From positions 1-49,191 of IMG/VR virus record IMGVR_UViG_3300025030_000156: 49,191 bases of DNA; one strand, written 5' to 3'. The notes beneath the pieces were generated by a model that did no database searches, was not told the origin of the DNA, and was given only the letters and a program-made list of their open reading frames with translations. Below are positions 7,736 through 35,240 of the stretch, one piece after another (position 1 is the stretch's first letter; the number at the start of each line of letters is the position of its first letter). A program made the position numbers and the translations under genes. This DNA is from a virus.

Positions 7736-10174
7736 ATGTCATTCTACAAATCGCGGATTCGATCGTACCTGCTGTACCAGGCGGGGCAGGTGTCCCCGAC
7801 CTTCGCGTCGCTGCACTTGCAGTCCTCGTTGACGGTGGATGTCAACGCCACCATCGTCGGGGATGTGTCTGCCGCCAACGTCGTGGCCTCCGTCGGCATG
7901 AGTATGGCGTCGCTCACCACAACCGGCGCCGCGACCATCGGCACCACGCTGGACGTGACCGGGGCGGCCACTGTAGGCACCACGCTTGGAGTTACAGGAG
8001 ACGCCACACTAAGTGCTAACGCCAGTGTGGGCGGCCTTCTCAGTCTTGCGTCCGGTGCCGCTGGGGGGCTCAAGGTCGGAGCTGATACATATTTCACTCG
8101 GGGCGCTGCCGGTGCGCTGCATGTTGGAGCCAGCGCTGGTGGATACGACGGGAAGTTGAAGTGTAAGGAATATGAAGCAAACACGTTGGATGCTGGAACA
8201 AACGATGTTGTCAGGCCCATCATGAGCGTCCACACCACGACCGGATTGGCCGCGGCAGGCTTTGGGACTGGCTACAGTTTCTTCGCGGAGAATGCAAGCG
8301 GGACTGAATCTGAAATTGCGAGAATAGACGCAATATACACAGATACGGTCGTCGCAACCATGGGCGCAGACATTGTTTTTTATCCCGTGTCTTCCGTTAC
8401 TGGTGTCGCCTCTTTTGCGGAACGCCTTAGATTGACAAATCTTGGCGTTTTGAAAAGCTATTACAATTCAACGAATGCCAACAGTGCCGAGGAAATTCTT
8501 GTCCATCAACGGAATACAACCGGAGCGGCTGTAGTCGGAATAGGCATAGATGAAGTGTTCAAGGTGGAAAACGCCGCAGGGAACGCAGCGACTACGGCTA
8601 CTTGGCGGTACACGCTGACGGATGTGACTAATGGCGCTGAGTACGGCAAAGTTGAACTGTACGTTCCAATAAATAATTCGCAGGTTTGTATTGCTTCCTT
8701 CGACGCCAAGAACGACCCCAAGTGGAGCTTCTATGGAGGCATCAACCAGATCAGCGTCACGGACCTATTGATCTCAGACAAAACCGCCACGTTCAACGAC
8801 GGCGGTTTGGCCGGTTCCGGCGGAGGGTGTGGCATTCTGATCGAGGAGAACGCTGCCATCACCGCCTACTGGAAGCAGAACGCGGGCCGCACGGGTTGGG
8901 AACTCACGAGTTCCGCCGCGCCGACGCGCATCCTCAGCATCATCACCCCCACCGCCGCCTCGGAGTCCCTGACGATGAGCGGATCGCTCGACGTGGAGCT
9001 GGATAGCGTCATCAACCAGGATCTCTCGTCTGATTCCGCAACCGCCGCCTTCGCGGCCCTCAACGTCTCCGCTGCCGGCGGGTTGCTCCTCGGCACTGCG
9101 TCTTCTGCCGCCGGCCTCCTGAAGATCGCCAACGCCGCCAACGCCTTCCTTATCAACGTCACCGGCACTGCTACGGCGGCAGACAAGAACATTGCCTTCC
9201 CGGATGCCTCCGGCACGGTTGCGGTCTCCGCCTCCGGGGCTATGAACCTCAGCGCCGCGGGCGACATCACGGCGGACGATGCCGTGGCCGACGGGGCCAC
9301 CAAGGGCGTCGCGGCCTTCAACGCCACCAACTTCAGCGCCGCCGTTGGCGTGGTCAACACAATCCAGGGCATCAGCGCTGCCGCAACGCCGGAGTACGCG
9401 GGCCTCACCCTCACGGGTGCCCAGACCGGCACCACGGCGACCTTCTCGGGCGCCGTCCAGGGCCTCGTGCAGACTCAACTCGACATCATCAACGCCACCG
9501 CCGACACCGGTGCCCTAATCGTAGAGGATTGCGAAGCCGGCGACGCCGCGGCTTGGACCGAATCCCACGACACTTTTTGGGACATCGCCGACGATGCCGT
9601 GACCTACAAGGTCGGCACCGGGTCACTTAAGTTCACTTGCAGTGGGACAGCCGCCGACAACGATGTCTGCTACCTCCCGACGGCTTCCTTCGTCTGGACC
9701 GACATTGACCGTGTGGGGTTCTGGATTCGCCCGAGCATCGCTCTCGATGGTGGCGACATCCTTCTGTACTGCTACGATGGCGCCGGCGGGACCACCACCA
9801 ACGAACTGAGCCTCGGCGCCCTGGTGGCCAACACCTGGGTGTATCTCTCCATGGACATCTCGGGTTTTGTGAAGGGTGACATTGACCGCGTTGGATTCAG
9901 CCTATCGGCCGCCGGAGCCGCCAAGGCGTTCTACGTCAACGTGGACAACATCGCGGCCTGGGACGAGACCTACACCACGGCGCTTACTCAGGTCCCCCTG
10001 CTCGGCGGGTGGCGCGGCACATGGCAGTTTGGGGATCTCGCTGCGGACAACCACACTTCAGTCGCGGTTGCCGAGAACACCGACTTCATCCAGGATTACT
10101 CGGCGACCAAGAAATTCGTCCCCCTCACCGACTACAGCGGCAAGGTGCTGTTCCTCAACTACTGCTATGACTAA
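7736..10174 (+). CDS. Long tail-fibre or head-fibre protein with repeats
   Basis: 812 residues. Residues about 20-110 contain repeated units (GAATIGTTLDVTGAATVGTT, LGVTGDATLSAN), typical of phage beta-helical shaft repeats; further repeats occur near 420-600. The last about 150 residues (from IVEDCEAGDAAAW) read as a lectin or carbohydrate-binding-type jelly roll: a Trp-rich sandwich with DIDRVGFWIRPS and later DIDRVGFSLSAAG, a repeated strand motif. It would reach the host surface glycan. It begins after AAGGAGGGTTT. Both fibre genes lie upstream of the terminase, an unusual placement. Confidence 0.7.
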   Translation: MSFYKSRIRSYLLYQAGQVSPTFASLHLQSSLTVDVNATIVGDVSAANVVASVGMSMASLTTTGAATIGTTLDVTGAATVGTTLGVTGDATLSANASVGGLLSLASGAAGGLKVGADTYFTRGAAGALHVGASAGGYDGKLKCKEYEANTLDAGTNDVVRPIMSVHTTTGLAAAGFGTGYSFFAENASGTESEIARIDAIYTDTVVATMGADIVFYPVSSVTGVASFAERLRLTNLGVLKSYYNSTNANSAEEILVHQRNTTGAAVVGIGIDEVFKVENAAGNAATTATWRYTLTDVTNGAEYGKVELYVPINNSQVCIASFDAKNDPKWSFYGGINQISVTDLLISDKTATFNDGGLAGSGGGCGILIEENAAITAYWKQNAGRTGWELTSSAAPTRILSIITPTAASESLTMSGSLDVELDSVINQDLSSDSATAAFAALNVSAAGGLLLGTASSAAGLLKIANAANAFLINVTGTATAADKNIAFPDASGTVAVSASGAMNLSAAGDITADDAVADGATKGVAAFNATNFSAAVGVVNTIQGISAAATPEYAGLTLTGAQTGTTATFSGAVQGLVQTQLDIINATADTGALIVEDCEAGDAAAWTESHDTFWDIADDAVTYKVGTGSLKFTCSGTAADNDVCYLPTASFVWTDIDRVGFWIRPSIALDGGDILLYCYDGAGGTTTNELSLGALVANTWVYLSMDISGFVKGDIDRVGFSLSAAGAAKAFYVNVDNIAAWDETYTTALTQVPLLGGWRGTWQFGDLAADNHTSVAVAENTDFIQDYSATKKFVPLTDYSGKVLFLNYCYD

Positions 10175-10634: not shown

Positions 10635-11226
10635 ATCCGATGAATCCGAGCCCCAGCGCACCAGGCGCTATACGCGGCAAGAGAAGGCGGGACCGCCCAA
10701 GCGGCGGTCCCGCCGCGGATTCTCCATAGATCCGCCTCCCCGCAAGGTCGAACTCGACGAGGACTACCAGATCCGCGTCGGCATCTTCAAAGGGGATCGC
10801 TTCCACGAGGTGGACGTGACCGAGGCCAACCAGGATGGCTCCTGGCTGACGCTGGTCTGGAAGCGCAAGACCTTCATGAAGATTCAGAAAATCTTCCTCC
10901 AGCCCGAGGACAGCTATTACAAGATTCTGCCCATCAGCGAGGACGTCACCAGAGTCCCGGAGGGTGCGAGGATAGAGATGGCGCCCGGGCGGGTGCAACA
11001 GCCCATGCGGGCTCCCGCCGCGGCACTCCAGGGGGCGTCCGAAAACTACGACCCCTCGAAGTACAGGGAGCAAATGGCCCTGGATTTGGAAGATGCGGCG
11101 GTATCGCAAAAGGCCGACCTGAGATACCCGCGTACCCCAAGGGTGCCGCCTCCCGAAACCCTCATTCCAGTGATGCCGGCGACAGAGGCCATGCCAGACC
11201 TCCCGGATGTCGAGCAAGAACAATGA
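10627..11226 (+). CDS. Hypothetical protein upstream of large terminase
   Basis: 199 residues from GTG 10627, which overlaps the previous stop and follows GGAGGGCCGAAAC. N-terminus is very basic (about 1-40), then a beta-rich domain (YQIRVGIFKGDRFHEVDVTEANQDGSW), then a Pro/Ala-rich tail. Position directly before TerL (4-nt overlap) makes small terminase subunit or packaging cofactor possible, yet no helix-turn-helix is evident. Confidence 0.6.
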   Translation: MPKSDESEPQRTRRYTRQEKAGPPKRRSRRGFSIDPPPRKVELDEDYQIRVGIFKGDRFHEVDVTEANQDGSWLTLVWKRKTFMKIQKIFLQPEDSYYKILPISEDVTRVPEGARIEMAPGRVQQPMRAPAAALQGASENYDPSKYREQMALDLEDAAVSQKADLRYPRTPRVPPPETLIPVMPATEAMPDLPDVEQEQ

Positions 11227-12872
11227 GCGCCCTCCCGCAGGTTCAGGCCGCGCCCATCATTCTGAAGCACCAGTATCAGAAGGACAAGGCCTTTTATTTC
11301 AAGCCGACCGGAGAGAACTTTTTCGCGTTCTGTGTTGAAATCCTGAACATGCACTGGCTCAAGGAAAAACCAAACAAGGATATGGCGGACTTTTTGGCTT
11401 CGCCGGATTACTTGCCATGGCGCCTCATGGCTGTATGCCGGGACTCTGGGAAAAGCACGTTAAGCGTCAACGGCTTTCCGATATGGGACGTATGCCAGGG
11501 GATTCATGAAGGTGACAACGGCAGATGCCACTTGTTTGATAGCGCATCTATTGAGTTGGTGGCATTGCACCTGGAAGCAGTACAAAACCAATTACGATAT
11601 AATGAAAGACTCATAGAAATGTTCGGTGCGTTTTACAACCGTGAGGCCTGGACATTCAAGCGCTGTGTCGTGCTCCAACAGTGGGACCACAAGAACAAGA
11701 CTCGCCGGGAAGGCACATTCATGATTCGCTCGACAATGAGCGAAATCACAGGCCTGCACTTTACGCGGATCGAAGCGGATGATTGGGTCACGAAAATGAA
11801 CACCCGCACAGACCTTGGCATCCAAAGGGGCATTCAGCACTATCAGGAAATTATTAGCGTTCTGGATAAGGACATCGGGCAGATGCGCATCACCTGCACC
11901 TTCAAGCATTGGGCCGACGCCTACCAGCACATCATAAAGAATGTCGCGCAGAAGTTTTCTTTCTTCATCAAGGCCGTTGGGGTTGAGTACGAGCGCGGCA
12001 AATGGAAGGACCTGTTTTTCCCGGAGAAATTTTCCGAGGAAAAAATCAACGACATCAAAGACTCACTTTCAAAAACAATCGGGGGAGACCAAGAATTCGC
12101 AACCGAGTATTTACTCCAGCCCGTTGCGGAATCCACTAAGACCTTCGCAGATGAACATTATCAGGAGGTTGAGAAGAAGGACCTCTTCCCCATTCGTTGG
12201 ACGTACATAGTCTATGATCCGGCAGGATCATCCGAGGACAAGTATAGTCGTTCTTGCGACTTCATCGGTGCCCTCGGCGTGGACCATTCGGGCAAGAATA
12301 TGGTGCTGACGGATGGCTACATGAAGCCGGCCATGCAGCCCGTTGATGTGTTGAACAGCATCGTATTTTTGTGGAAGATTCACAAAAGCAACTTGAGGGC
12401 CATCATCATTGAGGACGTAACATTCGGGAAGTTCATCTTAAAGATGTTGGATGATTATTGCCGCGAGCATAGCGTCTACATGCCGATTATAACGTCAAAG
12501 CCCGAGCGCAAGCACAACAAGATCGAGCAGCAAAAAATCCTGCAACCGCGTTGGATGGGCAAGGGTATGTGGTTTCTCAAGGAACTCCCGGAAGAAATCC
12601 GAGTCGAGGCCCGCGATGAATTCATGCACTACCCAAAGGCCTCTTATAATGATCTGCTTGATGGCATTGTAATGGTCGAACGCATGACGCGCTACATGCC
12701 CGACGAGATCGAAAAGGCCAAGGCGGAGACCAAGGCATATATCCAGGCCGCCAAGGATGGGATACTTCAGGTGAGCGCCGAAATGTTTTTCGACCAAAAG
12801 GACAAGCCCGAGGAAGACAAGCAGGACGACGACGAGATGACGGAGCAGGCGGATGTCGATCAGGTCTGGTAG
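11223..12872 (+). CDS. terL: Terminase large subunit
   Basis: 549 residues. Packaging motor ATPase plus endonuclease. An unusual Walker A, CRDSGKST, is at 72-79 with the lysine at 77; the Walker B-like RIEADDW has D186 and D187. The C-terminal RNase H-like nuclease shows YDPAGSS with D332, IIIEDVTFG with E397/D398, and NDLLDGIV with D477 and D480, fitting the metal ligands of TerL nucleases. It cuts concatemeric DNA and pumps it into the prohead through the portal encoded next. The start overlaps the previous stop by ATGA and the end overlaps the portal gene by 20 nt. Confidence 0.93.
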   Translation: MSALPQVQAAPIILKHQYQKDKAFYFKPTGENFFAFCVEILNMHWLKEKPNKDMADFLASPDYLPWRLMAVCRDSGKSTLSVNGFPIWDVCQGIHEGDNGRCHLFDSASIELVALHLEAVQNQLRYNERLIEMFGAFYNREAWTFKRCVVLQQWDHKNKTRREGTFMIRSTMSEITGLHFTRIEADDWVTKMNTRTDLGIQRGIQHYQEIISVLDKDIGQMRITCTFKHWADAYQHIIKNVAQKFSFFIKAVGVEYERGKWKDLFFPEKFSEEKINDIKDSLSKTIGGDQEFATEYLLQPVAESTKTFADEHYQEVEKKDLFPIRWTYIVYDPAGSSEDKYSRSCDFIGALGVDHSGKNMVLTDGYMKPAMQPVDVLNSIVFLWKIHKSNLRAIIIEDVTFGKFILKMLDDYCREHSVYMPIITSKPERKHNKIEQQKILQPRWMGKGMWFLKELPEEIRVEARDEFMHYPKASYNDLLDGIVMVERMTRYMPDEIEKAKAETKAYIQAAKDGILQVSAEMFFDQKDKPEEDKQDDDEMTEQADVDQVW

Positions 12873-14796
12873 CTACAGCCGCCACGCCAAGCAGTGGAAG
12901 ATCCGCCTCCAGGAGGCGAAATCCGCCATGGACTCCATGTCCGCGGGATGGTCGGAGAACGTGAAGCTCTACAACGGCAAGAAGAAGTTCAAGGGAAACG
13001 TGGCATACAAGTACTACATTCCGGCCGTGTACCAGAAACTCAAGATTCGTCGCGCCCAGGCCATTCCCGCCAGCCTTGATTTTGTGGCATCTGTGGTGGG
13101 CGAGAACGACCCCAACACCAATGCCCTCGTCACGGCCTTACTGAACTCGCAACTCCAGACCGAAGAGTTTATGGAGATCCTCAACAAGACCGACACCCAG
13201 ATATTTTGCAAGGGTTACGGTTGGATTCAGGCCGACATTGAGTACATCACCAACGAGGACGGCGAGGTCATTGTGGAACGCATCAAGCCGGTTTTCCACC
13301 GCACCGAGGACGTGCTCTACGACCCCAACGCAAGGCTCTTCAGCGACATTCACTGGATCGCCGCCGCCTATTGGATCACGGTCGAGGAGTTCCTTGCTGA
13401 CGATGGTTTGTTGGATGACGCAGTGTACAAGAAGAAGGACAAGATTCTGAAGGCACACAACATCAAGCGCACCGACGACGACGGCGTGGGTTGGATCGAG
13501 CCCGTGAACGTCGTCCCCACACACACCAAGCGGAGCCTGGGCAGTAAAGAGAACTCGGATGAGAATCTCTCCGCTGACCCGCGCTTCTATCGCTTAAAGA
13601 TTTGGGAAATATGGGATGCCGCGTTGCGGCAGAAAATCCACATGGAGGACATGACGCTTGCAATCTGCCTTGAAGAGGACTATCAGATCAAGAGCCAACA
13701 CTTCAAGTTTCCGATGGTCCCGCTCAGTTATACCGACGAGGATGACGAGGAACTGCCGCCGCACCCCGAGATCGATAACTGGATTGACTTCCAGAAGCAG
13801 AAAATCAGGCTCCGCCAGAACCAACTGGAGGACGCCACGAAGCGGGTGCGAGCCTTCTTGGCCCTCCCGGATGCTTTCAACAAGGAAGAACTGACCAAGG
13901 CTATTGCGGGGTCGCCGAAAAACCGCGTGGTATTCGCCAACGGCGAAGCCTTCGGCGCCATGGACACCAACCGGGACATCAGCCGCCTCATCATGCCCCT
14001 GCCGGAGAATTCAAGCCCACCGGATACCGAGTACATCTCCAGGGCCATTGACGCCGACTTCGACCAGACTTCCGGGATGGGGCCGGCTGGTCGCGGGGGT
14101 CTGCCTGTGGCTTCAAGCGCCACAGAAACCAATGCCATGATGGGCATGATGGGCGCCTCCGCGCAGAAGATCGGCATGAAGGTCATCAATGCCGCCAAGC
14201 GCTTCGCCGAAATGTCGCTCATCATGATGGCGGAACTCTTCGAGGAGGAGACCGTCGTCCAGATGTACGAAATCGGACGCCCGGCCGCGTGGTCCACGCT
14301 GAAGAAGCGCATCCTCAAGAAGGGTCGCTTTGCCGTGGAGGTCTACCCCGGGATCAAGGGCGTCATTGACCGCCAGAGCATGAGCATGGAGATCCTCAAT
14401 ACTATCAAGACGATCTTCCCCTTCGCGCAGGCCAACAACCTCGACCTGACGCCCATGGTGAAGCGCCTGATGTTCCTCCAGGGCATGAAGCCCTCGGAGA
14501 TTGAGTCCGTGTTTAGCGGCCGCACGGAACTCGCCAAGGCGGTCTTGACGGAGATCATGCAGTCCCTCCAGGACGGCAACGTGGATCAAAACGAGATGCA
14601 GGTCATCCTTGGCAAGGCGACGATGCTGGCTAAAGCCAACCTCGGGCCGGCGGACATCGCCGAATTGCAGGGCAAGTTCAAGGGCTCGGGCGGCCAGGCC
14701 CCCGGCCCGCAGTCGGCCGCGGGAGCCGGGTCTCAACGCACCGAGACGCCGGAACTCGCCCAACAGGACATGGGGCGTGGCCCCGGAGGCATGTGA
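12853..14796 (+). CDS. Portal protein
   Basis: 647 residues, a size typical of podovirus portals. It begins with a helical clip and wing region, contains VFHRTEDVLYDPNARLFSDIHW and the long acidic and basic stem-like helices (IDFQKQKIRLRQNQLEDATKRV), and ends with a Gly/Ser/Ala-rich tail. The gene follows TerL and precedes scaffold and capsid genes, the canonical order. The dodecameric portal forms the DNA entry vertex and the attachment site for the tail. The last 60 residues may be disordered. Confidence 0.88.
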   Translation: MSIRSGSYSRHAKQWKIRLQEAKSAMDSMSAGWSENVKLYNGKKKFKGNVAYKYYIPAVYQKLKIRRAQAIPASLDFVASVVGENDPNTNALVTALLNSQLQTEEFMEILNKTDTQIFCKGYGWIQADIEYITNEDGEVIVERIKPVFHRTEDVLYDPNARLFSDIHWIAAAYWITVEEFLADDGLLDDAVYKKKDKILKAHNIKRTDDDGVGWIEPVNVVPTHTKRSLGSKENSDENLSADPRFYRLKIWEIWDAALRQKIHMEDMTLAICLEEDYQIKSQHFKFPMVPLSYTDEDDEELPPHPEIDNWIDFQKQKIRLRQNQLEDATKRVRAFLALPDAFNKEELTKAIAGSPKNRVVFANGEAFGAMDTNRDISRLIMPLPENSSPPDTEYISRAIDADFDQTSGMGPAGRGGLPVASSATETNAMMGMMGASAQKIGMKVINAAKRFAEMSLIMMAELFEEETVVQMYEIGRPAAWSTLKKRILKKGRFAVEVYPGIKGVIDRQSMSMEILNTIKTIFPFAQANNLDLTPMVKRLMFLQGMKPSEIESVFSGRTELAKAVLTEIMQSLQDGNVDQNEMQVILGKATMLAKANLGPADIAELQGKFKGSGGQAPGPQSAAGAGSQRTETPELAQQDMGRGPGGM

Positions 14797-16502: not shown

Positions 16503-17558
16503 ATGAGTTCGATCTGGACCCAGAGCGGTACTTCGCTAAGCCTGGAACTAACCACGCTGGCGCAGTCCTGTCTCACGGACGAGTCTAAGAACATTTACGA
16601 ACAGTTTCTCAGGGACCATCCCTGGATCAGCTACTTAAACGCGAGAAATCGCGTCACCGAGGATGGCGGAGAGATCATTCTCCGCCATGCCAAGTATCGC
16701 AGTGGCCGAACCGGGGAATGGTTTGAGAGAAATGATACGCTTCACGCCGACTTCCAGGAAACCCGAGTGCCCTTCAGCACGACCTGGAAGAACTACGCCC
16801 AAGGCATCATCATCCCGCTGATGGACCTCATTGTCGCCAAGAACAATTCCTGGGGACCGGCGCTTGACGTGATCGCCGAGCAGACCGAGGATGCCGTCGC
16901 GGCCATGGAGGAAGGTCTCAACGCGGCCCTTCTTGGAGATGGCACAGGACACGGCAACAAGGTCTGCATGGGGCTTCAGGGCCTCGTGCGCCGCAGTCCG
17001 ACATCCGGGGCGCTCTTCGGCCTGGATTCCGCGTTGTGGTCGTTCTGGCGCAACGCCAGCTATAACGTGGGCACCTACGCCACAGCCGATGCCGCCACGG
17101 CTTCATGGCTCAACTACGGCTTCAATGGCCAAGAGGACGATCTGTACTCCATCGCCAAGACCGCCATCAGTGAAGGTTCCATGAAGCCGGACTTGCTCCT
17201 GAGCGGCCCCACGCTTCAGATGTACTACGGCCACCAGGTGCTCAATAATTTTGTCCAGGTGTCCAGGACCGACGCGGACATCGGCCGCATGGCCGTCATT
17301 CTGGATGGTATGACGTGGGTTACAGACAAGATGCTGGAAGACCTCCAGATTCACCCGGCGGGCAATCTCTACATGCTCAACTCAAAGACACTGGAACTCG
17401 TGGTGTCGAACGAGTGGAACATGAAGAACACCGGGTTCAAGGATCTCACGGCGAACCAGCGCCTGGCCATGATCTGCTTCATTCTGTTCCGGTGCAACTT
17501 CATCATCACCCAGCCGATGTTCAACGCCGTGATTCACGGCTACACGGCGGAACTGTAG
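16503..17558 (+). CDS. Major capsid protein
   Basis: 351 residues following the scaffold gene with a good ribosome-binding site (GGGAGGATAACCCTA). It shows an N-arm, a long spine-like helix (EQTEDAVAAMEEGLNAALLGDG), and a C-terminal beta region (NSKTLELVVSNEWNMK) ending HGYTAEL, as expected for an HK97-fold capsid of short-tailed phages. It builds the icosahedral head. No cleavage protease gene is seen nearby. The identity is inferred from context, length and pattern. Confidence 0.82.
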   Translation: MSSIWTQSGTSLSLELTTLAQSCLTDESKNIYEQFLRDHPWISYLNARNRVTEDGGEIILRHAKYRSGRTGEWFERNDTLHADFQETRVPFSTTWKNYAQGIIIPLMDLIVAKNNSWGPALDVIAEQTEDAVAAMEEGLNAALLGDGTGHGNKVCMGLQGLVRRSPTSGALFGLDSALWSFWRNASYNVGTYATADAATASWLNYGFNGQEDDLYSIAKTAISEGSMKPDLLLSGPTLQMYYGHQVLNNFVQVSRTDADIGRMAVILDGMTWVTDKMLEDLQIHPAGNLYMLNSKTLELVVSNEWNMKNTGFKDLTANQRLAMICFILFRCNFIITQPMFNAVIHGYTAEL

Positions 17559-27252: not shown

Positions 27253-27891
27253 ATGGGATCTAACAAACGCGGGTGGGAACAGCAGTATGCACAGGCCATG
27301 CAGGGACAGGCCCAGATTGCCCAAGATCAGTGGAATCTCTATGAGCCCAACCTGAAATACCTCATGGGGCAGGCCAGAGAGCAGATGAACCAGGGCCTCG
27401 GGGCCCCCCCCCAGTACGTCCGGGAGGCATTCGACCGCATGGAGGGCCTCACCCGGGACGAGTACGCCAAGGCCGGCCTCAACGCCGAAGAGCAGATGAG
27501 CCAGCGGCTCAAGCAACAGGGGCTCAACGGCTTCGTCAACCCCAATGCGCGGGCCGAGATGTCCCGGCGCACACAGGTGGGCCTGGCGGGCCAGGAGGCC
27601 AACACCCTCGCGGGGATGCGCCTCCAGGAGGCCCAGATCGGGATGCAGCAGGTCCTCAGCATGGCCGACATTCTCCGTGGGGGCACCGGGCAACTGGCCG
27701 CGGGTGCCCAACAGGGCTGGGCCAACCAGATGCAGGGCCTCCAGTTCCTCATGAATAACGCCGGGGGCTCCCAGTGGGGCAACGCCATGGCCGGCGCCGG
27801 GCAGGGTGCCGCCGTGGGCGGGGCCTCGGGTTCAGGCTACGGCGCGGCCATCGGGGCGCTCATCGGCGGGGTTGCGGGGTATAACTCATGA
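27253..27891 (+). CDS. Ejection-type internal virion protein 1
   Basis: 212 residues. Gln and Met rich helices (LKYLMGQAREQMNQGLGAPPQYV, LNAEEQMSQRLKQQGLNGF) followed by a C-terminal glycine-zipper (GSGYGAAIGALIGGVAG), a membrane-active pattern found in phage DNA-ejection proteins that form a channel across the cell envelope. The gene starts with GAGGAGGACCTC and overlaps the next gene by ATGA. Confidence 0.75.
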   Translation: MGSNKRGWEQQYAQAMQGQAQIAQDQWNLYEPNLKYLMGQAREQMNQGLGAPPQYVREAFDRMEGLTRDEYAKAGLNAEEQMSQRLKQQGLNGFVNPNARAEMSRRTQVGLAGQEANTLAGMRLQEAQIGMQQVLSMADILRGGTGQLAAGAQQGWANQMQGLQFLMNNAGGSQWGNAMAGAGQGAAVGGASGSGYGAAIGALIGGVAGYNS

Positions 27892-29429
27892 GTTGGGAGG
27901 ACGAGTACCGCCGGCTGCGGGAGCAGCAAAACCTTGAGGCCATGGGGCAGTCCGGGGCCGGGGTGCTGAACGATCTCTCCTTCCTTCAGCGCCAACAGGA
28001 CGAGGAGCCCGTATTCAAGGCCGTCAAGATGGATGGCAAGGGGAACGTCAAAGTGGAGGGCAATATCGCCGCCCTCCAAGGCCTCATGGGCCGCATCCAG
28101 TCCCAGGACCCGGGCATGGTCGAGGCCCTGAACCCGGCGGCCGAGCAGGCCCAGCGCGACTCTGGCCCCCAACCTACCCTCGGCCAGGGGGCCCAGGCCA
28201 TAGCCGCGGCTGACGCCCAAGGCGGTTTCTGGGGCGCCCTCAAGGGCCTGGCCATGCGGGCGGGTCGCGCCGGGGGTGGCCTCCAGAACTTCGACCGCCG
28301 GCAGGGCATCGGGAACCTCCTGGGCCTCCTGGGCGCCGTGCCCCAGGGGGAGGCGATGTACCAGCAGGAGAAGGCCGGGTTCGAGGACCGACTGGCGGGG
28401 TACAAGATGCGCATGGCGCAACTGGAGGAGGGGATCCGGGATGGACGGTTGAACCGGCATGTTGCCACTCTTCGCGCAGAGAGAGAAACAATGGCCATCC
28501 GGAAAATGGCGCAAGAAGAGAAATGGAACAACACGGTCGTGCCTGAAGATCAGGCCATCACCAGTCTCTCGTACATTCCTGAAGAAGGTCGGGGATTGGC
28601 CAGGGATCTCATGCGGTCCATGGCTTGGTCTGTGAACGCATCAACTACTCCTGGCGTCGAGAGGTACTCTACAACAAACGCCGACATGAAGGCTTTTGCT
28701 GCATGGTACATGGAAACAACGGATTTCAGCGCCAAGGATAGAACGCGGGAGCAAGAGATGGCTCTTTCACAAGCAAGGGCCACACTGCAAATAAATGCAG
28801 ACAAACGCGCCGACGCCATCCAAGCGGAAATATTGAAACTCGGCGATCCCTCTGATGACAATGACGCAAAGAAAGCGAAACGGCAGAAGTTGCAAAAGGA
28901 GTTGGACCTTGCCACCAATATCACCAACAGAATCCGGGAAGGCGGGACGCAATGGGAGCGTGCCGTCTTGGCCAGTGAGACATCCTTGGAGAATACTGCA
29001 ACGCGGGTGGCGGCGCAAGATGCGGCCGTAGCGCGCAAGGCGGAGGCCAAGAATACTATCCCGAACGAGAAGATAGCCGGGAAGTTGCGCATTTTGAATG
29101 CCGCCAAGTTTGCGGCAAAGAACCGCGACAAGAATAACCCGGTGTGGGCATTACTCGCCAAAGAATACCCTGATCTGAAGATGGGGCCAGGAGCGGACCC
29201 GGACGAGTTGTTGGCGGCGATAGAAGACGAACGCGCCATCTACATCGGGAAGTCGGCAGACAACCTTGTGTCTGAAGGCCTGGACACTTATGGGCTACCT
29301 AAATCAAAAGAAGCTATAATGAGGCTTTCAGAAGATGAGGCCCGGAAGATCACACAGGCGATGCGGCGCAAAGGATACACCGAAGAAGCAATCAAGGAAG
29401 CCACACGCCGCTGGATGGCGGGTCAGTAG
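27888..29429 (+). CDS. Ejection-type internal virion protein 2
   Basis: 513 residues, almost entirely helical and charged with long coiled-coil-like regions (about 275-340, ADAIQAEILKLGDPSDDNDAKK). Its N-terminal 150 residues are Gln/Ala/Gly rich. In short-tailed phages this position is occupied by the second internal protein that enters the cell with the DNA. The final residues contact the next gene, whose start directly follows the TAG. Confidence 0.68.
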   Translation: MSWEDEYRRLREQQNLEAMGQSGAGVLNDLSFLQRQQDEEPVFKAVKMDGKGNVKVEGNIAALQGLMGRIQSQDPGMVEALNPAAEQAQRDSGPQPTLGQGAQAIAAADAQGGFWGALKGLAMRAGRAGGGLQNFDRRQGIGNLLGLLGAVPQGEAMYQQEKAGFEDRLAGYKMRMAQLEEGIRDGRLNRHVATLRAERETMAIRKMAQEEKWNNTVVPEDQAITSLSYIPEEGRGLARDLMRSMAWSVNASTTPGVERYSTTNADMKAFAAWYMETTDFSAKDRTREQEMALSQARATLQINADKRADAIQAEILKLGDPSDDNDAKKAKRQKLQKELDLATNITNRIREGGTQWERAVLASETSLENTATRVAAQDAAVARKAEAKNTIPNEKIAGKLRILNAAKFAAKNRDKNNPVWALLAKEYPDLKMGPGADPDELLAAIEDERAIYIGKSADNLVSEGLDTYGLPKSKEAIMRLSEDEARKITQAMRRKGYTEEAIKEATRRWMAGQ

Positions 29430-32400
29430 ATGCCCAACATCTTCGCCGATGCCTTGAAGGAAGAAGAGAAGAAGCCGGCGGCTTCTGGCAATATCTTCGC
29501 ACAGGCGTTGGCCGAGGAAGTTCCGGTCAAGCCCGAAGGCAAGCCCCCGCGCTTCGCCGCGGTGGCCGGAAAAACACTGCCCATGGGGCAATTCGACGAG
29601 ACCGCGGGGAGTGTGGCGGGGGACGCGCTCAAGGGGATGGGGCAAACCACGGCAGGAGTCTTCGTCCAAACAGGGAAGGATGTCCTCGGGCTCGCCGAGG
29701 GCGCAGCCGCCACCATCTCTGGCATCCCGTCCTTCCTCGGGGGCCTGGCCGCCACCACCTACGATGTCGTCAAGCAGACCGCCCCTCCGTTCGTCACCTT
29801 CGGCGTAGGGCCAGAATCCGAGCCCGGAGAGGGCAGGGATATCTTCCACATAGACTGGGGCCGCGCCAAGCGCGTCAAGGAGGAGGTCAACGCCTTCTTG
29901 GGGTACGAGCCCATGACCGAGGAGGGGGCCACCTACGCCTCCCTGCCGGCCGCTCCCTTTGAATTGTACGCCCAGGGCGTGTCGAAGGTGGGCGGAGTCC
30001 TCGAAGAGAAGGCCGGGATCCCCCAGGAGGCCACCGAGATCGCCGGAGAAGCCGCACTCCTTGGGATGGGCGCCGCCTTCAAGGGTGCCAAGGCCGCCAT
30101 CCCCAAAGGCCGCTCCCTGATCGCCTCCATCGTCGAGAAGGCCAAGCGCGACCGGCCCCCCGTTGTTACTCGCCCCGGGGACGTTGCCCCGGGGGTCGCT
30201 ACTGGCCCCCTGGAGCCTTCGCCCGAAGCGCCCAAGGCCCCCGAGGCTCCAAAACCCAAGGCGCCCGATGTTCAAAATATTGAACAACCTGCGAAAGCCT
30301 TGACATCGGAGACTCCGAAGCCCACAATAGAAGAGGGGATAACGGTAGCCCCCAATGGAAGCACGATAGTGGAGGTGCCTGCCAGTGAAGGCCCAGCCGT
30401 TCCTCCTAAAGCTCCTGCTCCAATCCCGGTCAAGCCCAAGAGGCTTAGTCCTCAAGAATGGGATGCCCTGTCCCCAGGGGAGAAGAGGGCATACCAGGAA
30501 GCCTATGCTGATTATGCCGAAGCGATGGAGCGTTACGGCAAGGAGAAGGAACTTCTCGCCAAGACGGACGATCTCACTGGAGCACAGAATGGACGCGCTC
30601 TCAAGGAAAGAATTGCACAATCCGAGGTGGCGGGGGAGGAAGTATATTATGCCTCCCTCGACATTGACAAATTCAAGAAAGTCCAGCAGAAGATTGGCAA
30701 CCGCGATGCTGGAGGGGACGCGGTTATTAAATCCATATTCAAAGAACTCAAGGAAGAACTGGATCCATCGGATATCTTCAGGAAGCGCGAGGGCGGCGAC
30801 GAGTGGGTGGTACGAGGGAATGATCCGGCCGCTCTGGAAACAATGCTGGGATGGGTGCGCAAGAGAACTCAAAAAGCGGTTATAGAATGGAGAGATGAAA
30901 ATGGACAAGTCCGAAAATACACAGGCGGTTTCGACTTTACCTTCGCCATTGACCGAGACCTCGCAAAGGCCGACGCCATCCGAGATCGAATCAAAGATTC
31001 AAGACCCGCTGAGCCCCCAACCGGGGGAGTCGGCCCTGGATTGGGTGAGACGCCTGCCGCAACGGGGGACGTTCCGGGTAATCCTCCCGCCAAAGGCGCT
31101 ACCGCCAAGCCCAAGAAAGCCGCAGTAGACAAGACCGCCGGCAACAGCATCTCGCAGGACGCCCGCAGTATCGGCTTCACGCGGGAGGCGGTCATGGGCG
31201 ACGGGCGGAAAGACCCGCGCACAGGGAAGCGAATCGAAACGGAGATCGGCACGCTGGCTGAGACGGGCAAGAGAACAAAGAAGGGAGCCAAGACCTTCGA
31301 CCTAAGCTGGATCAAAACCAGAGACGAGGCCGGAACCGTAGGTATGAAGGGTCTCGACCAGATGCGCGGCGCCCTCATTGAGAAGGGCTACAATCTCGAA
31401 GGCGTGTCCGATAGTCTGCTCCTCAAAATGCTCATCGAAGACGACACGGCCCGCAAACAAACAGGAAAGGGAAAGCATTACCGGGAGCTGGAGGAGGAGC
31501 GCCAAGCATCAGAGGCAGAGATGCCCCAACCCGAGGACCGCCGCGCCGCCGAGCGCCCCGAGGGGGCCCCGGTGTGGACAGAGGAGCAACGATCCAAGCC
31601 GGCCGAGGACGTGGTGGACAAGACCGCCCCTCTCACCCTCCAGCAGGAAGGCCCCGCCATGCCGACGACCCAGCAGGGGTTCGGGCAGGTGCAGGCCGAC
31701 ATGGTGGCGAAGGACGTAGCCAAGAAGGAAGTGGAAGCGGCCGCGGCGGCACCGAAGGCTGAGGACCTGCCGATGTTCAAGGAGAAGCCAAAGACCCCAT
31801 CCGGCGAGGCGGACGTTGGAGGATACGACCTCAGCGGCGTGTCTCCAGAGGCCGGCAAGGCGGCCACTACCGTTCTGAGGAACACGGCGCAAGCGGTAGA
31901 ACTCCCTGAGATCGTGAACATCTTCAAGCAGATCAGCGGGAAGTACCCCCAGGTGGTGCGGAAACTTCGGGGGGCCCTCGGACGCTTCACGCATGGCGCG
32001 AATGATATCAAGGTGCTGGCTGAACTGTCCGCCAATCCCGGGCTCATGGAGCGCGTCCTGGCCCACGAGGCAGGGCACTTCGTAGACACCCTCCCCAAGG
32101 ATGTGACTCGCGGTAATATCCTGGGGCACCTGGCGACCCTGTCCCACAACTTCAAGAAGCGTTACTGGCCGATGGGTGAGGAGTTGACCAAGGCGGACAT
32201 GCAGAGGATCTCGGCCGAGGCCAAGGCAATCACAGCCAAAGAGAAGGCTGGCGTGGTGGAGGAGGCGATCCCGGGCGTTACGCCAGACGACATCCGCGCC
32301 ATCTGGAACGATAATGCCGCCCGCGCCAAGTATCCCGACCTCTACAACTATATCGCTAACCTTTCGGGCCACAAGAAGGCTTCCATCCTGAAGGAGGCCA

Positions 32401-35240
32401 TGAAGGGTGTCGTGGACGCCAAGCTCGAAGAGCACTTTGCCCAGAAGAAGAACTATGTGGACTGGGCTGCCAAAGAGAAGGAAACATTTCATCGCCTCCT
32501 GGACGCCGAGCTCAAGAAGCGCCGGGTGTACGACGCCGGCGCCATCACAGAGGAACTCAAGAACCTTTCCATGAAGTGGAAGCCCTTCGACCCAGCGGCC
32601 AACGCCTCGATGACTAAGTACCGCTTCAGCGCCAAGGAACTCTATGCCGACGCCATGAGTGTTCTCTTCAACGACCCCAAGCTCCTGATGCAGGAGGCCC
32701 CACAGTTCTACGCCGGATTTCTGGAGTTCCTGCATCGCAAGCCGGAGTTCCAGAAGATCTACTCCGAGATGCAGGAGCGCATCATGTCTGGGCGTACATG
32801 GGAATACCGGGACGCTACGCTCGATGCCATGTTCGACCGAGGGGAAGAGGCGTGGAAGAACACAGCCATCACGGACAAGGAGAAACTGTGGCCCACCCTG
32901 AAGGATGAGTTGTGGAACGTCGCCTCCGTTCTGAAGGAGAAGTTCGGGAATATGTCGAAGGAGTACGTCGGCTGGGAGGAGATGATCTATGGGATGTCCG
33001 AAGCCGAGGCCCACATGTCCATCCTGAACGCCGGCGTCTTGGAGAAAATAAAGGAGCATGGGTTCACGGAAAAAGAGATCGGCAAGGCGTTGATGATGGA
33101 TCACATCGTCCTGGAGCGTAGCCACATCGCCAACCCCGGAGGGTTCACGAAGACTGCCGCCGAGGCCCACCTGGCCGGCATGGCTGAGCGCATGGGACCC
33201 GAGCGTTGGGCCGCCTTGGTGGACGTGGTCGAAAAGTTTAGAGAAGCGCGGAAGCCCCTATTTTCCAAGATGCGAGAATCGCAGATGTTCTCGAAGGAAT
33301 TGATGGACAAGATCGAAGACAATGTAGGCTATGCTACCATGCAAATAGTGAAGTGGATGGAAGAGAAGCACGGCTCAGGCGAGACGGCCCACATCTACCG
33401 GCAGTACGGCACCTTCGAGGATGCGGCCAACCCCCTGACCGCCACCATAATGAAGGACCTGAGCATAATCCATGCGATCAACAGGAACAAGGCCAAGGTG
33501 ACGGTCCTGAAGGGGATGCGCGAGATGTTCCCGCAGGAGATCCGGCCGGCCAAGACGAGGTGGGACGGAAAGCGCAACGCCATTGTCGAAAGCCGCGACC
33601 CGAAGTGGGAAACCATGATCTTCATGCGCGACGGCAAGACGGTCGGGTTCGATGTCACCAAGCGCGTCGCGCAGACGTTCGACATGTCTCCCTGGGAACT
33701 GTCCGGGCTGACGCGGATGCTGGCTGCGATGAATAAGCCGTTCCGGGACATCTTCATCAACTACAACCCAGGATTCACGCTGTTCAATGCCCTGCGTGAC
33801 TTCAGGAGTGGGCTCAGGCAACTTCCCGGCAAGACTCCTCTCGGAGCGCCGGGCCCTGGATTCGTCCAGCTCCTACCTTATTGGGGACGGGGGTACAAGG
33901 CCGCAGCCCGTAGCCTTTGGGGCAAGAAATTCGACCCCAAGGTGCAGATGATGTTGGAGGAGCATTCGCTCATCACCAGCCTGGACTACGCTGGGATGGA
34001 CAAGGCGGACACCCAGCTCAACAGGATGCTCTCCAGATTCGGGATGAGGAAACTGTACGACAAGCCCAACCACGTCGTCGTGAAGTTCCTGAAGGCGGTC
34101 CTGCCATTCTTGGAGCGCGTCAACCAGACGGTCGAGCGGGGTGGCAAGGTGGGCGCAGACCTATACCTCCGGGACAAGTTCCCCGGGATGCCGGCCGCGG
34201 AGCGGGCCCATCGCGTCAGGCGTGTTGGGAGTCCCCCGTTCCTCGTGAAGGGCCGGGCGACGCCGTTGACCAACAACCTTTTCCTGTTCGAGAACGCCTT
34301 CAAGCGCGGCTGGGAGGCTCAGTACGAGTCCTTCCGGGAGAGCCCCGCGGCCTACGCCTACAAGGTTGCGAAGTTCGACCTGGTGCCCAAACTCGTGCAG
34401 TACGGGATCACCGCCGGGCTCCTCGGCTGGGGGCTGAAGTCCATCATGGACGGCGCCAGTGAGTACGACAAGACCAACTACACCATCATCCCGCTGGGGA
34501 TGACGGAAAACGGGAAGTCGGTGTACTTCAGGATCCCGCACGATGAGACCGGCAGGGTGCTTGGTGGAGTCTTCTGGAAGGGCATGGTCGGGATTAAGGC
34601 TCCGAACTCACTGCCATCAATCTTGGACTACACTGCCGGCCAGATGCCAATGATTGCTCCTCCTATCGGCTTGGCGTCCGATGCCATCCAGTATTTCCTG
34701 TTGGGCCAGAATCCGCAGGACCGCTTCCGGGGCACCTCGGCGGTCCCCGAGACCATTTTTGACGCCCACGACTACCGGAGCGTCGCCGCGTTTGTGAAGT
34801 ACATGTCGCAGAAGGCCGGCCTGAACGCGGTCTACAAATTCAAGGCCGATGATGCCGGCCTGGTCGAATCCAAAATAGAAAAGGTCGTCGGATTGCCGAT
34901 CGCGTCCAACCTACTCGGTAGGTTCCTGCGAGTTTCCGACAAAGGTTTGCGCGAAGAACTCCAGAAACCCCTGGATGAACTCCGCGTGGACAAGGCCCGC
35001 CAGTCGCTCGACCTCAACGATGCGCTGGGCAAGTTGATCGCAGGGAAGACGCTCGATGTCCGCGACATTCAGGTGATGCTGGAGCGCAAGGATACCGTGA
35101 ACGACCGTCTCCTGAAGATGATGCAACGACGCTACGGCGACGCCTTTATGAAGGTGTTCTCGAAGGCCAAGACCAACGAGGAGATGCTGGTGGTGATCGA
35201 AAAATATCTGGACATTATGTCTAAGCGAAGGGAGAACTGA
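29430..35240 (+). CDS. Giant multidomain internal protein with GGDEF-like and zincin domains
   Basis: 1936 residues, the largest gene here. N-terminal 1-30 has two NIFA-type repeats (NIFADALKEEE, NIFAQALAEE) and a hydrophobic stretch near 85-115. Residues about 370-525 are GGDEF-like: TDDLTGAQNGRAL at 379-391, LDIDKFKKV at 410-418 with D411, and GGDEW at 455-459. No inhibitory RxxD site is seen. A zincin follows: HEAGH at 879-883, and KELYADAM with E1070 as a possible third metal ligand. From about 1434 the NYNPGFTLFNALRDFRSG block resembles the C-terminal LPD38-type domain of large polyvalent proteins. Such proteins are packaged and injected with phage DNA to modify the host. It is the last large gene of the late operon. 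Activities are inferred. Confidence 0.85.
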   Translation: MPNIFADALKEEEKKPAASGNIFAQALAEEVPVKPEGKPPRFAAVAGKTLPMGQFDETAGSVAGDALKGMGQTTAGVFVQTGKDVLGLAEGAAATISGIPSFLGGLAATTYDVVKQTAPPFVTFGVGPESEPGEGRDIFHIDWGRAKRVKEEVNAFLGYEPMTEEGATYASLPAAPFELYAQGVSKVGGVLEEKAGIPQEATEIAGEAALLGMGAAFKGAKAAIPKGRSLIASIVEKAKRDRPPVVTRPGDVAPGVATGPLEPSPEAPKAPEAPKPKAPDVQNIEQPAKALTSETPKPTIEEGITVAPNGSTIVEVPASEGPAVPPKAPAPIPVKPKRLSPQEWDALSPGEKRAYQEAYADYAEAMERYGKEKELLAKTDDLTGAQNGRALKERIAQSEVAGEEVYYASLDIDKFKKVQQKIGNRDAGGDAVIKSIFKELKEELDPSDIFRKREGGDEWVVRGNDPAALETMLGWVRKRTQKAVIEWRDENGQVRKYTGGFDFTFAIDRDLAKADAIRDRIKDSRPAEPPTGGVGPGLGETPAATGDVPGNPPAKGATAKPKKAAVDKTAGNSISQDARSIGFTREAVMGDGRKDPRTGKRIETEIGTLAETGKRTKKGAKTFDLSWIKTRDEAGTVGMKGLDQMRGALIEKGYNLEGVSDSLLLKMLIEDDTARKQTGKGKHYRELEEERQASEAEMPQPEDRRAAERPEGAPVWTEEQRSKPAEDVVDKTAPLTLQQEGPAMPTTQQGFGQVQADMVAKDVAKKEVEAAAAAPKAEDLPMFKEKPKTPSGEADVGGYDLSGVSPEAGKAATTVLRNTAQAVELPEIVNIFKQISGKYPQVVRKLRGALGRFTHGANDIKVLAELSANPGLMERVLAHEAGHFVDTLPKDVTRGNILGHLATLSHNFKKRYWPMGEELTKADMQRISAEAKAITAKEKAGVVEEAIPGVTPDDIRAIWNDNAARAKYPDLYNYIANLSGHKKASILKEAMKGVVDAKLEEHFAQKKNYVDWAAKEKETFHRLLDAELKKRRVYDAGAITEELKNLSMKWKPFDPAANASMTKYRFSAKELYADAMSVLFNDPKLLMQEAPQFYAGFLEFLHRKPEFQKIYSEMQERIMSGRTWEYRDATLDAMFDRGEEAWKNTAITDKEKLWPTLKDELWNVASVLKEKFGNMSKEYVGWEEMIYGMSEAEAHMSILNAGVLEKIKEHGFTEKEIGKALMMDHIVLERSHIANPGGFTKTAAEAHLAGMAERMGPERWAALVDVVEKFREARKPLFSKMRESQMFSKELMDKIEDNVGYATMQIVKWMEEKHGSGETAHIYRQYGTFEDAANPLTATIMKDLSIIHAINRNKAKVTVLKGMREMFPQEIRPAKTRWDGKRNAIVESRDPKWETMIFMRDGKTVGFDVTKRVAQTFDMSPWELSGLTRMLAAMNKPFRDIFINYNPGFTLFNALRDFRSGLRQLPGKTPLGAPGPGFVQLLPYWGRGYKAAARSLWGKKFDPKVQMMLEEHSLITSLDYAGMDKADTQLNRMLSRFGMRKLYDKPNHVVVKFLKAVLPFLERVNQTVERGGKVGADLYLRDKFPGMPAAERAHRVRRVGSPPFLVKGRATPLTNNLFLFENAFKRGWEAQYESFRESPAAYAYKVAKFDLVPKLVQYGITAGLLGWGLKSIMDGASEYDKTNYTIIPLGMTENGKSVYFRIPHDETGRVLGGVFWKGMVGIKAPNSLPSILDYTAGQMPMIAPPIGLASDAIQYFLLGQNPQDRFRGTSAVPETIFDAHDYRSVAAFVKYMSQKAGLNAVYKFKADDAGLVESKIEKVVGLPIASNLLGRFLRVSDKGLREELQKPLDELRVDKARQSLDLNDALGKLIAGKTLDVRDIQVMLERKDTVNDRLLKMMQRRYGDAFMKVFSKAKTNEEMLVVIEKYLDIMSKRREN

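What the first reader, a model, noticed from the sequence alone, without database searches (positions are those of the whole stretch)
30561..31010. GGDEF-like domain inside a giant phage internal protein
Residues about 370-525 of the 1936-residue protein match diguanylate cyclase blocks: TDDLTGAQN, LDIDKFKKV with D411, and GGDEW at 455-459 instead of GGDEF. The I-site RxxD is not visible. If the domain is active, injected virion protein could raise c-di-GMP in the infected cell and switch it from motile to sessile; if not, it may bind GTP or c-di-GMP. I know of no common phage structural protein with this domain.
Basis: partly seen in the sequence, partly recalled or inferred. Interest (0 to 1): 0.85.

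Follow-up and report, generated by a model that had tools for sequence, protein, structure and literature searches.

The report
Virion polyvalent protein carrying atypical GGDEF
A giant phage protein, probably packed in the virus particle and injected into the bacterium, carries a bacterial signalling-enzyme (GGDEF) domain as an apparently acquired, exchangeable module; [quoted passage not shown]

Summary
Residues 377-525 of the 1936-aa ORF (29430-35240, +) are a GGDEF domain: Pfam PF00990 scores 28.1 bits (33.4 excised; cut-off 23.8), the AlphaFold2 model has pLDDT 92, and all 50 listed PDB matches are GGDEF/diguanylate-cyclase structures (best E 5e-9). The protein's last ~1130 residues (HEAGH zincin-like motif plus C-terminal region) recur in over 70 viral contigs and in Pelagibacter phage Baldr. 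There the N-terminal half carries other polyvalent-protein cargo: ART-PolyVal, ddrB-ParB, Strawberry-notch helicase, SLT. No GGDEF occurs in 50 whole scaffold-bearing records. The GGDEF module lies in a GC3-poor island (aa 273-557; 0/2000 permutations), consistent with acquisition. So this is a polyvalent protein with exchangeable cargo, a kind in which GGDEF was reported as rare by Iyer et al. 2017. The site is atypical. Metal/phosphate residues (D411, K416, D457, E458, K522) remain; guanine Asn (Q419), cross-dimer Arg/Asp/His/Tyr (G388, Q420, N424, D519), GGDEF Phe (W459) and I-site Arg are lost. It deviates at 10 of 30 conserved columns (49 other GGDEFs: median 1, maximum 4). Most likely an injected nucleotide-binding effector, not an efficient canonical diguanylate cyclase. 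Activity and virion presence are untested.

The parts
29430..35240 (+). 1936-aa polyvalent-type giant protein
   Evidence: scaffold homology
30558..31010 (+). GGDEF domain (aa 377-527)
   Evidence: Pfam/NCBIfam/PDB/AF2
30567..30590 (+). DxLTGxxN turn, DDLTGAQN aa 380-387 (kept); next residue G388 replaces the conserved cross-dimer Arg
30660..30677 (+). DIDKFK aa 411-416, metal/phosphate loop, kept
30684..30689 (+). Q419-Q420 in place of the invariant guanine Asn and following Asp
30717..30719 (+). D430, equivalent of the guanine-binding Asp, kept
   Evidence: residue roles from PMC8041772
30792..30806 (+). GGDEW signature, aa 455-459
30993..30995 (+). K522, equivalent of gamma-phosphate Lys, kept
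30246..31100 (+). GC3-poor island aa 273-557 (GC3 0.52 vs 0.76 gene-wide) enclosing the GGDEF domain and linkers
   Evidence: 0 of 2000 permutations reach it
31800..35195 (+). conserved scaffold aa 791-1922 (zincin-like region plus C-terminal region)
32064..32078 (+). HEAGH zincin-like motif, aa 879-883; H, E, G, H invariant in 31 aligned sequences
32637..32651 (+). ELYAD aa 1070-1074, conserved, candidate third metal ligand (inference)
27253..27891 (+). 212-aa protein with weak C-terminal glycine-zipper match, upstream in the same operon
27888..29429 (+). 513-aa protein directly upstream, overlapping previous ORF and abutting the giant ORF
11223..12872 (+). terminase large subunit
   Evidence: phrog_38 7.9e-32
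12853..14796 (+). portal protein
   Evidence: phrog_12082 2.8e-5
16503..17558 (+). major head protein
   Evidence: phrog_9953 7.3e-35; Mx8/Mx9-like

Best explanation
The 1936-aa protein is a polyvalent protein. A conserved zincin-like protease plus virion scaffold (aa ~791-1936) is carried in the particle and passes into the host with the DNA (inferred). Its N-terminal half holds exchangeable effector cargo. In this phage the cargo is a GGDEF domain gained by horizontal transfer (supported by a composition island and absence from relatives). After ejection the domain acts in the host cytoplasm, possibly released by the protease (inferred). It most likely binds a purine nucleoside triphosphate with Mg2+ (inferred from retained metal/phosphate residues) and interferes with nucleotide signalling as a binding or weakly catalytic module. 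It is probably not an efficient canonical diguanylate cyclase, because most guanine-reading and dimer-forming residues are lost.
For: GGDEF identity by profile and fold. Scaffold shared with Baldr and >70 contigs, homology never extending N-terminal of aa 791. Relatives carry other polyvalent domains: ART-PolyVal 8e-23 and Radical_SAM 8.6e-10 (L102), Strawberry-notch helicase 5.5e-21 (L145); ddrB-ParB 5.5e-36 (L173) and 2e-35 (L138), SLT 1.7e-20 plus MutS_I 9e-26 (L129). GGDEF absent from 50 whole scaffold-bearing records with control ringing. GC3-poor island aa 273-557, z -7.5 for aa 365-530. Conserved-column test: kept D380 L382 T383 G384 N387 D411 D413 F415 K416 G423 G429 D430 R453 G455 G456 E458 D515 K522; lost R->G388, N->Q419, D->Q420, H->N424, F->W459, Y->D519; window 10/30 deviations against median 1, maximum 4. 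Residue roles from DgcR, PMC8041772.
Against: No proteomics: virion presence and injection are inferred. The zincin fold was not confirmed by fold search (best E 0.35, although the top hits are metallopeptidases). No second copy of this GGDEF variant was found in viral contigs, so selection on the domain cannot be measured. The AF2 model was built on an alignment of canonical DGCs, which favours that fold. GGDE, D430 and K522 are intact, so activity is not excluded.
Confidence: 0.5

Rival explanations
1. Active canonical diguanylate cyclase: after injection it makes c-di-GMP and shifts the host from motile to sessile.
For: GGDE, DID, the FK lysine, the guanine Asp D430 and gamma-phosphate Lys K522 are retained; the missing I-site would free it from feedback inhibition; Iyer et al. 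propose cyclic-nucleotide production by GGDEF in polyvalent proteins.
Against: Invariant guanine Asn, cross-dimer Asp, His and Tyr, and the conserved Arg are all replaced; 10 of 30 conserved columns deviate. The closest cellular relatives found keep N, D and H. A canonical cyclase must homodimerise and no dimerising input domain was recognised (above its cut-off Pfam finds only GGDEF).
Confidence: 0.18
2. Passenger: the domain was captured recently and is decaying, or serves only as a structural spacer in the giant protein.
For: GC3 island indicates acquisition; unique among scaffold relatives; loss of conserved active-site residues; no other copy to show maintenance.
Against: Frame is open and the domain is predicted to be well folded (pLDDT 92). 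Metal and phosphate residues survive while guanine and dimer residues are lost, a non-random-looking pattern (judged after the fact).
Confidence: 0.22
3. Non-canonical nucleotidyl cyclase making another signal, for example to flood or mimic cyclic-dinucleotide defence signalling (CBASS, Panoptes).
For: Metal and phosphate site kept with base-reading residues altered; in the related mCpol fold the base-contact residue sets the product (PMC12657218); Hypr GGDEFs change substrate through base-contact residues and often lack the cross-dimer Arg (PMC6456294).
Against: The Hypr signature (Asp to Ser) is not present, D430 is kept; known GGDEF cyclases still need a dimer; no direct evidence.
Confidence: 0.08
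4. Assembly chimera or annotation artefact joining a bacterial GGDEF to a phage gene.
For: Abrupt GC3 change at aa 273-557.
Against: One open frame of 1936 codons, the domain flanked by proline-rich linkers in the same composition island, composition returning to phage values on both sides, divergent residues unlike the cellular relatives found.
Confidence: 0.02

Closest known systems
Polyvalent proteins with GGDEF, e.g. Acetonema longum prophage WP_004096050.1 (Iyer et al. 2017, PMC5512222)
   Same: Giant prophage/phage protein combining GGDEF with a zincin-like peptidase, in a virion-gene context.
   Different: That one also has SWI2/SNF2, methyltransferase and ART domains; this one sits on a scaffold shared with Pelagibacter phage Baldr and its GGDEF lacks the guanine and dimer residues. 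The Acetonema sequence was not compared here.
Pelagibacter phage EXVC032P Baldr giant protein WDQ27601.1 (OQ414636)
   Same: aa 791-1922 homologous (23%, E 2e-57), HExGH conserved; gene lies between tail tubular protein B and tail fibre genes.
   Different: N-terminal ~1060 aa unrelated and without GGDEF.
Diguanylate cyclase DgcR of Leptospira (6zxm/6zxb), SiaD (7e6g), PleD
   Same: Fold and the metal/phosphate residues.
   Different: No Rec, coiled-coil or other known activating input domain recognised; guanine Asn and most cross-dimer residues replaced; GGDEW; no I-site.
Stand-alone phage GGDEF proteins: Bacillus phage G gp350, Bacillus phage SP-15, Bordetella phage CN1; prophage dCache-GGDEF genes
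   Same: Phage-encoded GGDEF.
   Different: Separate small or sensor-linked genes, not cargo of a giant virion-type protein.
BFVD A0A516M277_1
   Same: Best viral fold match (E 1e-9) lies in a 1143-residue piece of what appears to be a longer, unnamed viral protein.
   Different: Sequence and context not available here.

Membership tests
GGDEF domain (PF00990) | Profile match above curated cut-off | tested here: met
   28.1 bits whole protein, 33.4 excised, cut-off 23.8
GGDEF domain (PF00990) | GGDEF (group III nucleotidyl cyclase) fold | tested here: met
   AF2 pLDDT 92; the 50 listed PDB matches are GGDEF/DGC structures
GGDEF domain (PF00990) | GG[D/E]E[F/Y] signature | tested here: inconclusive
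   GGDEW: four of five residues kept, Phe replaced by Trp
Catalytically active canonical diguanylate cyclase | Metal and phosphate residues (DxD, FK, GGDE, AxK) | tested here: met
   D411, D413, K416, D457, E458, K522
Catalytically active canonical diguanylate cyclase | Guanine-binding Asn and Asp (DgcR N182, D191) | tested here: not met
   Asn is Q419; Asp kept as D430
Catalytically active canonical diguanylate cyclase | Cross-dimer residues (DgcR R147, D183, H187, Y286, D282) | tested here: not met
   G388, Q420, N424, D519 replace four of five; D515 kept
Catalytically active canonical diguanylate cyclase | c-di-GMP synthesis | not testable with these tools
   needs biochemistry
Hypr GGDEF (cGAMP synthase) | Asp to Ser at the guanine-reading position | tested here: not met
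   D430 kept; definition from PMC6456294
Polyvalent protein | Unrelated domains in one giant polypeptide | tested here: met
   GGDEF plus zincin-like HExxH region and a long C-terminal region
Polyvalent protein | Homologous scaffold with other polyvalent cargo | tested here: met
   ART-PolyVal, ddrB-ParB, Strawberry-notch helicase, SLT in relatives
Polyvalent protein | Late or virion gene neighbourhood | tested here: met
   terminase, portal and head genes on the same strand upstream; Baldr homologue among tail genes
Polyvalent protein | Packaged and transferred into the host | not testable with these tools
   needs virion proteomics and injection assay
Zincin-like metallopeptidase | HExxH motif conserved across relatives | tested here: met
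   H879, E880, H883 invariant in 31 of 31
Zincin-like metallopeptidase | Zincin fold | tested here: inconclusive
   model pLDDT 74; best match jannalysin metallopeptidase but E 0.35

The most novel reading that the evidence does not exclude
The virion delivers a GGDEF-derived enzyme that has changed base specificity and oligomeric mode and makes a nucleotide signal other than c-di-GMP, arriving before any phage gene is expressed, to pre-empt or saturate host cyclic-nucleotide defences.
Probability: 0.08. Interest if true: 0.85.

Novelty: new variant of a known kind. Interest (0 to 1): 0.45.

Why it matters
Polyvalent proteins were predicted from domain architectures to carry nucleotide-signalling enzymes. 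This case gives a compact, well-folded GGDEF cargo on a defined scaffold whose relatives carry other cargo, so the predicted delivery of a signalling domain with the phage genome can be tested with one purified domain. If the domain only binds nucleotides, it would be a virion-delivered reader or sponge; if it makes a product, phages would be shown to set a host second messenger at time zero of infection.

Tried and rejected
Single-protein search of the giant in IMG/VR found nothing. INPHARED tblastn hits of the domain are unannotated human-fecal scaffolds and contigs carrying ordinary bacterial genes with full-length DGCs, so they were not used as phage relatives. 80 viral-contig loci with GGDEF gave no giant virion-type protein (longest frame 1247 aa, none a scaffold relative), only sensor-linked, GGDEF-EAL-like or small stand-alone proteins. 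PHROG matches were not counted as virion GGDEFs: from profile lengths and positions they look like stand-alone phage DGC families (inference). Other window structural proteins had no blastp match in scaffold relatives. Zincin fold search was inconclusive. No exact terminal repeat was found in the window, so completeness is unknown; the host is unknown, one scaffold relative being in a Gemmatimonadales MAG. A search of 150 genomes around that MAG for the domain found GGDEF proteins in ordinary-sized frames; those read keep the canonical N, D and H.

Full report
OBSERVATION. The GGDEF match is well beyond chance: Pfam PF00990 E=2e-6 in the whole protein and 4.8e-8 for the excised domain, over the curated cut-off both times; NCBIfam TIGR00254 just over its cut-off for the excised domain; best PDB sequence match DgcR 6zxm, 1.5e-7. 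An AlphaFold2 model of aa 365-530 (50-row alignment, pLDDT 92, pTM 0.83) has the strand-helix order expected of GGDEF, and the 50 best PDB fold matches listed are GGDEF/diguanylate-cyclase structures (SiaD 5.1e-9, DgcB, DgcR, PleD). Caveat: the alignment consists of canonical cyclases, which favours that fold.

CONTEXT. The window is a 49191-base virus record with terminase, portal and major head genes on the + strand upstream of the giant ORF, and DnaB-like helicase, RecT-like annealing protein and exonuclease genes on the - strand. The head protein is distantly Mx8/Mx9-like. The giant ORF directly follows a 212-aa protein with a weak glycine-zipper match and a 513-aa protein. This layout is compatible with an ejection-protein cassette, but that is inference.

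SCAFFOLD. tblastn against phage records finds one relative, the 2329-aa protein of Pelagibacter phage Baldr, aligned from aa 791 to 1922 (23%, 2e-57); that gene lies between tail tubular protein B and a tail fibre gene. A profile search of IMG/VR returned 74 loci. In blastp no match extends N-terminal of aa 791, so a ~1130-aa C-terminal scaffold is shared and the N-terminal half is not. The scaffold starts with HE[LA]GH; H879, E880, G882, H883, D886 and P889 are invariant in 31 of 31 aligned sequences and an ExxAD motif lies about 190 residues on. A metallopeptidase is the natural reading, but the predicted structure (pLDDT 74) matched metallopeptidases only at E 0.35 or worse, so the fold is not shown.

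CARGO. The N-terminal halves of scaffold relatives carry different domains: two ART-PolyVal matches and a radical SAM domain in the closest IMG/VR relative (L102, 34%, 4173-codon frame), a Strawberry-notch-type helicase (L145), ddrB-ParB (L138, and L173 in a Gemmatimonadales MAG contig), and SLT plus MutS domain I (L129). These are hallmark or compatible domains of the polyvalent proteins of Iyer et al. 2017 (PMC5512222). GGDEF was found in none of 50 whole scaffold-bearing records at E<=1 while the control genomes rang, nor by an unfiltered local profile search of the scaffold loci then held. In this gene, codons 273-557, enclosing the GGDEF domain and its linkers, form a GC3-poor island (0.52 against 0.76 gene-wide; 0 of 2000 codon-order permutations reach it; z -7.5 for aa 365-530 given the rest of the gene's codon usage). 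A similar GC3-poor stretch exists in the gene 7736-10174, so such islands are not unique in this genome. The simplest reading is a GGDEF module acquired from a lower-GC3 source into an exchangeable N-terminal half.

ACTIVE SITE. Among 49 GGDEF domains from viral contigs, 30 alignment columns are at least 80% conserved. The window deviates at 10; the others deviate at 0-4, median 1. The alignment of the S and G columns of the last strand is uncertain; on the AF2 strand they would be T505 and A507, also deviant. In DgcR (PMC8041772), N182 and D191 bind guanine, K289 and R293 bind the gamma-phosphate, K179 sits over the alpha-phosphate, E218 holds a metal, and R147, D183, H187, D282 and Y286 make or may make contacts across the dimer. 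The mapping rests, the alignment and the DgcR numbering inferred from them. Window equivalents: K416, E458, K522, D430 and D515 kept, as are D411 and D457 (metal ligands in PleD, from general knowledge); N182->Q419, R147->G388, D183->Q420, H187->N424, Y286->D519 and the GGDEF Phe->W459 changed; R293 ambiguous (R525 one residue out of register). The I-site Arg is absent. The closest cellular relatives found in 150 genomes around the Gemmatimonadales MAG keep N, D and H, and no other viral contig showed the QQ variant, so the replacements look derived. Loss is concentrated in guanine-reading and dimer residues; this grouping was made after seeing the data.

MECHANISM. Shown computationally: GGDEF profile and predicted fold; shared scaffold; variable cargo; composition island; loss of canonical residues. 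Inferred: packaging and injection; proteolytic release; Mg-NTP binding; interference with nucleotide signalling. I judge canonical c-di-GMP synthesis unlikely but not excluded, a nucleotide-binding or weakly catalytic effector most likely, and a decaying passenger a serious rival.

NOVELTY. GGDEF in polyvalent proteins was already reported as rare, with the proposal that it interferes with host nucleotide responses. Stand-alone phage GGDEF proteins are also known. What is added here is a new scaffold lineage for this cargo, evidence that the cargo is swapped, and an atypical site that argues against the obvious c-di-GMP interpretation. Hence: new variant of a known kind, moderate interest.

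Noticed in passing
L018:7020-8570, L020:1060-2571, L021:4185-5696, L023:7038-8525: dCache-GGDEF diguanylate cyclase genes sit beside or among phage structural genes in prophage-like contigs, which looks like lysogenic conversion by membrane sensor cyclases.
   Followed up: partly
L024:7614-8495 (209-kb contig), L034:7689-8564 (199 kb), L033:6457-7371 (169 kb), L053:7974-8408 (230 kb): Very long viral contigs carry small stand-alone GGDEF proteins; L053 is only 145 aa with a truncated domain.
   Followed up: no
window 29430-29530; L129:24-150, L138:3264-3360, L103:4866-5010: Giant scaffold proteins often begin with a short motif given twice, different in each lineage (window NIFADALKEE/NIFAQALAEE; L129 RMTREQYRQQFG/RMTRAQFAQQHG; L138 AIPFPGM/AIPFPDM; marine group LxQAGF/LxKAGF). 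It could be a packaging or docking signal.
   Followed up: no
L102 (contig IMGVR_UViG_3300035445_000017): A 4173-codon frame with two ART-PolyVal matches and a radical SAM domain on the same scaffold.
   Followed up: partly
L173:5294-13434: In the Gemmatimonadales MAG contig the scaffold protein is split into two frames (1747 and 961 aa) near the start of the conserved region, a frameshift or an assembly error.
   Followed up: no
window 7736-10174: 812-aa gene with a GC3-poor stretch as strong as that around the GGDEF domain; it may also contain acquired sequence.
   Followed up: no
BFVD A0A516M277_1: An unnamed viral protein piece of 1143 residues is the best viral fold match and may be a second giant protein with GGDEF.
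   Followed up: no
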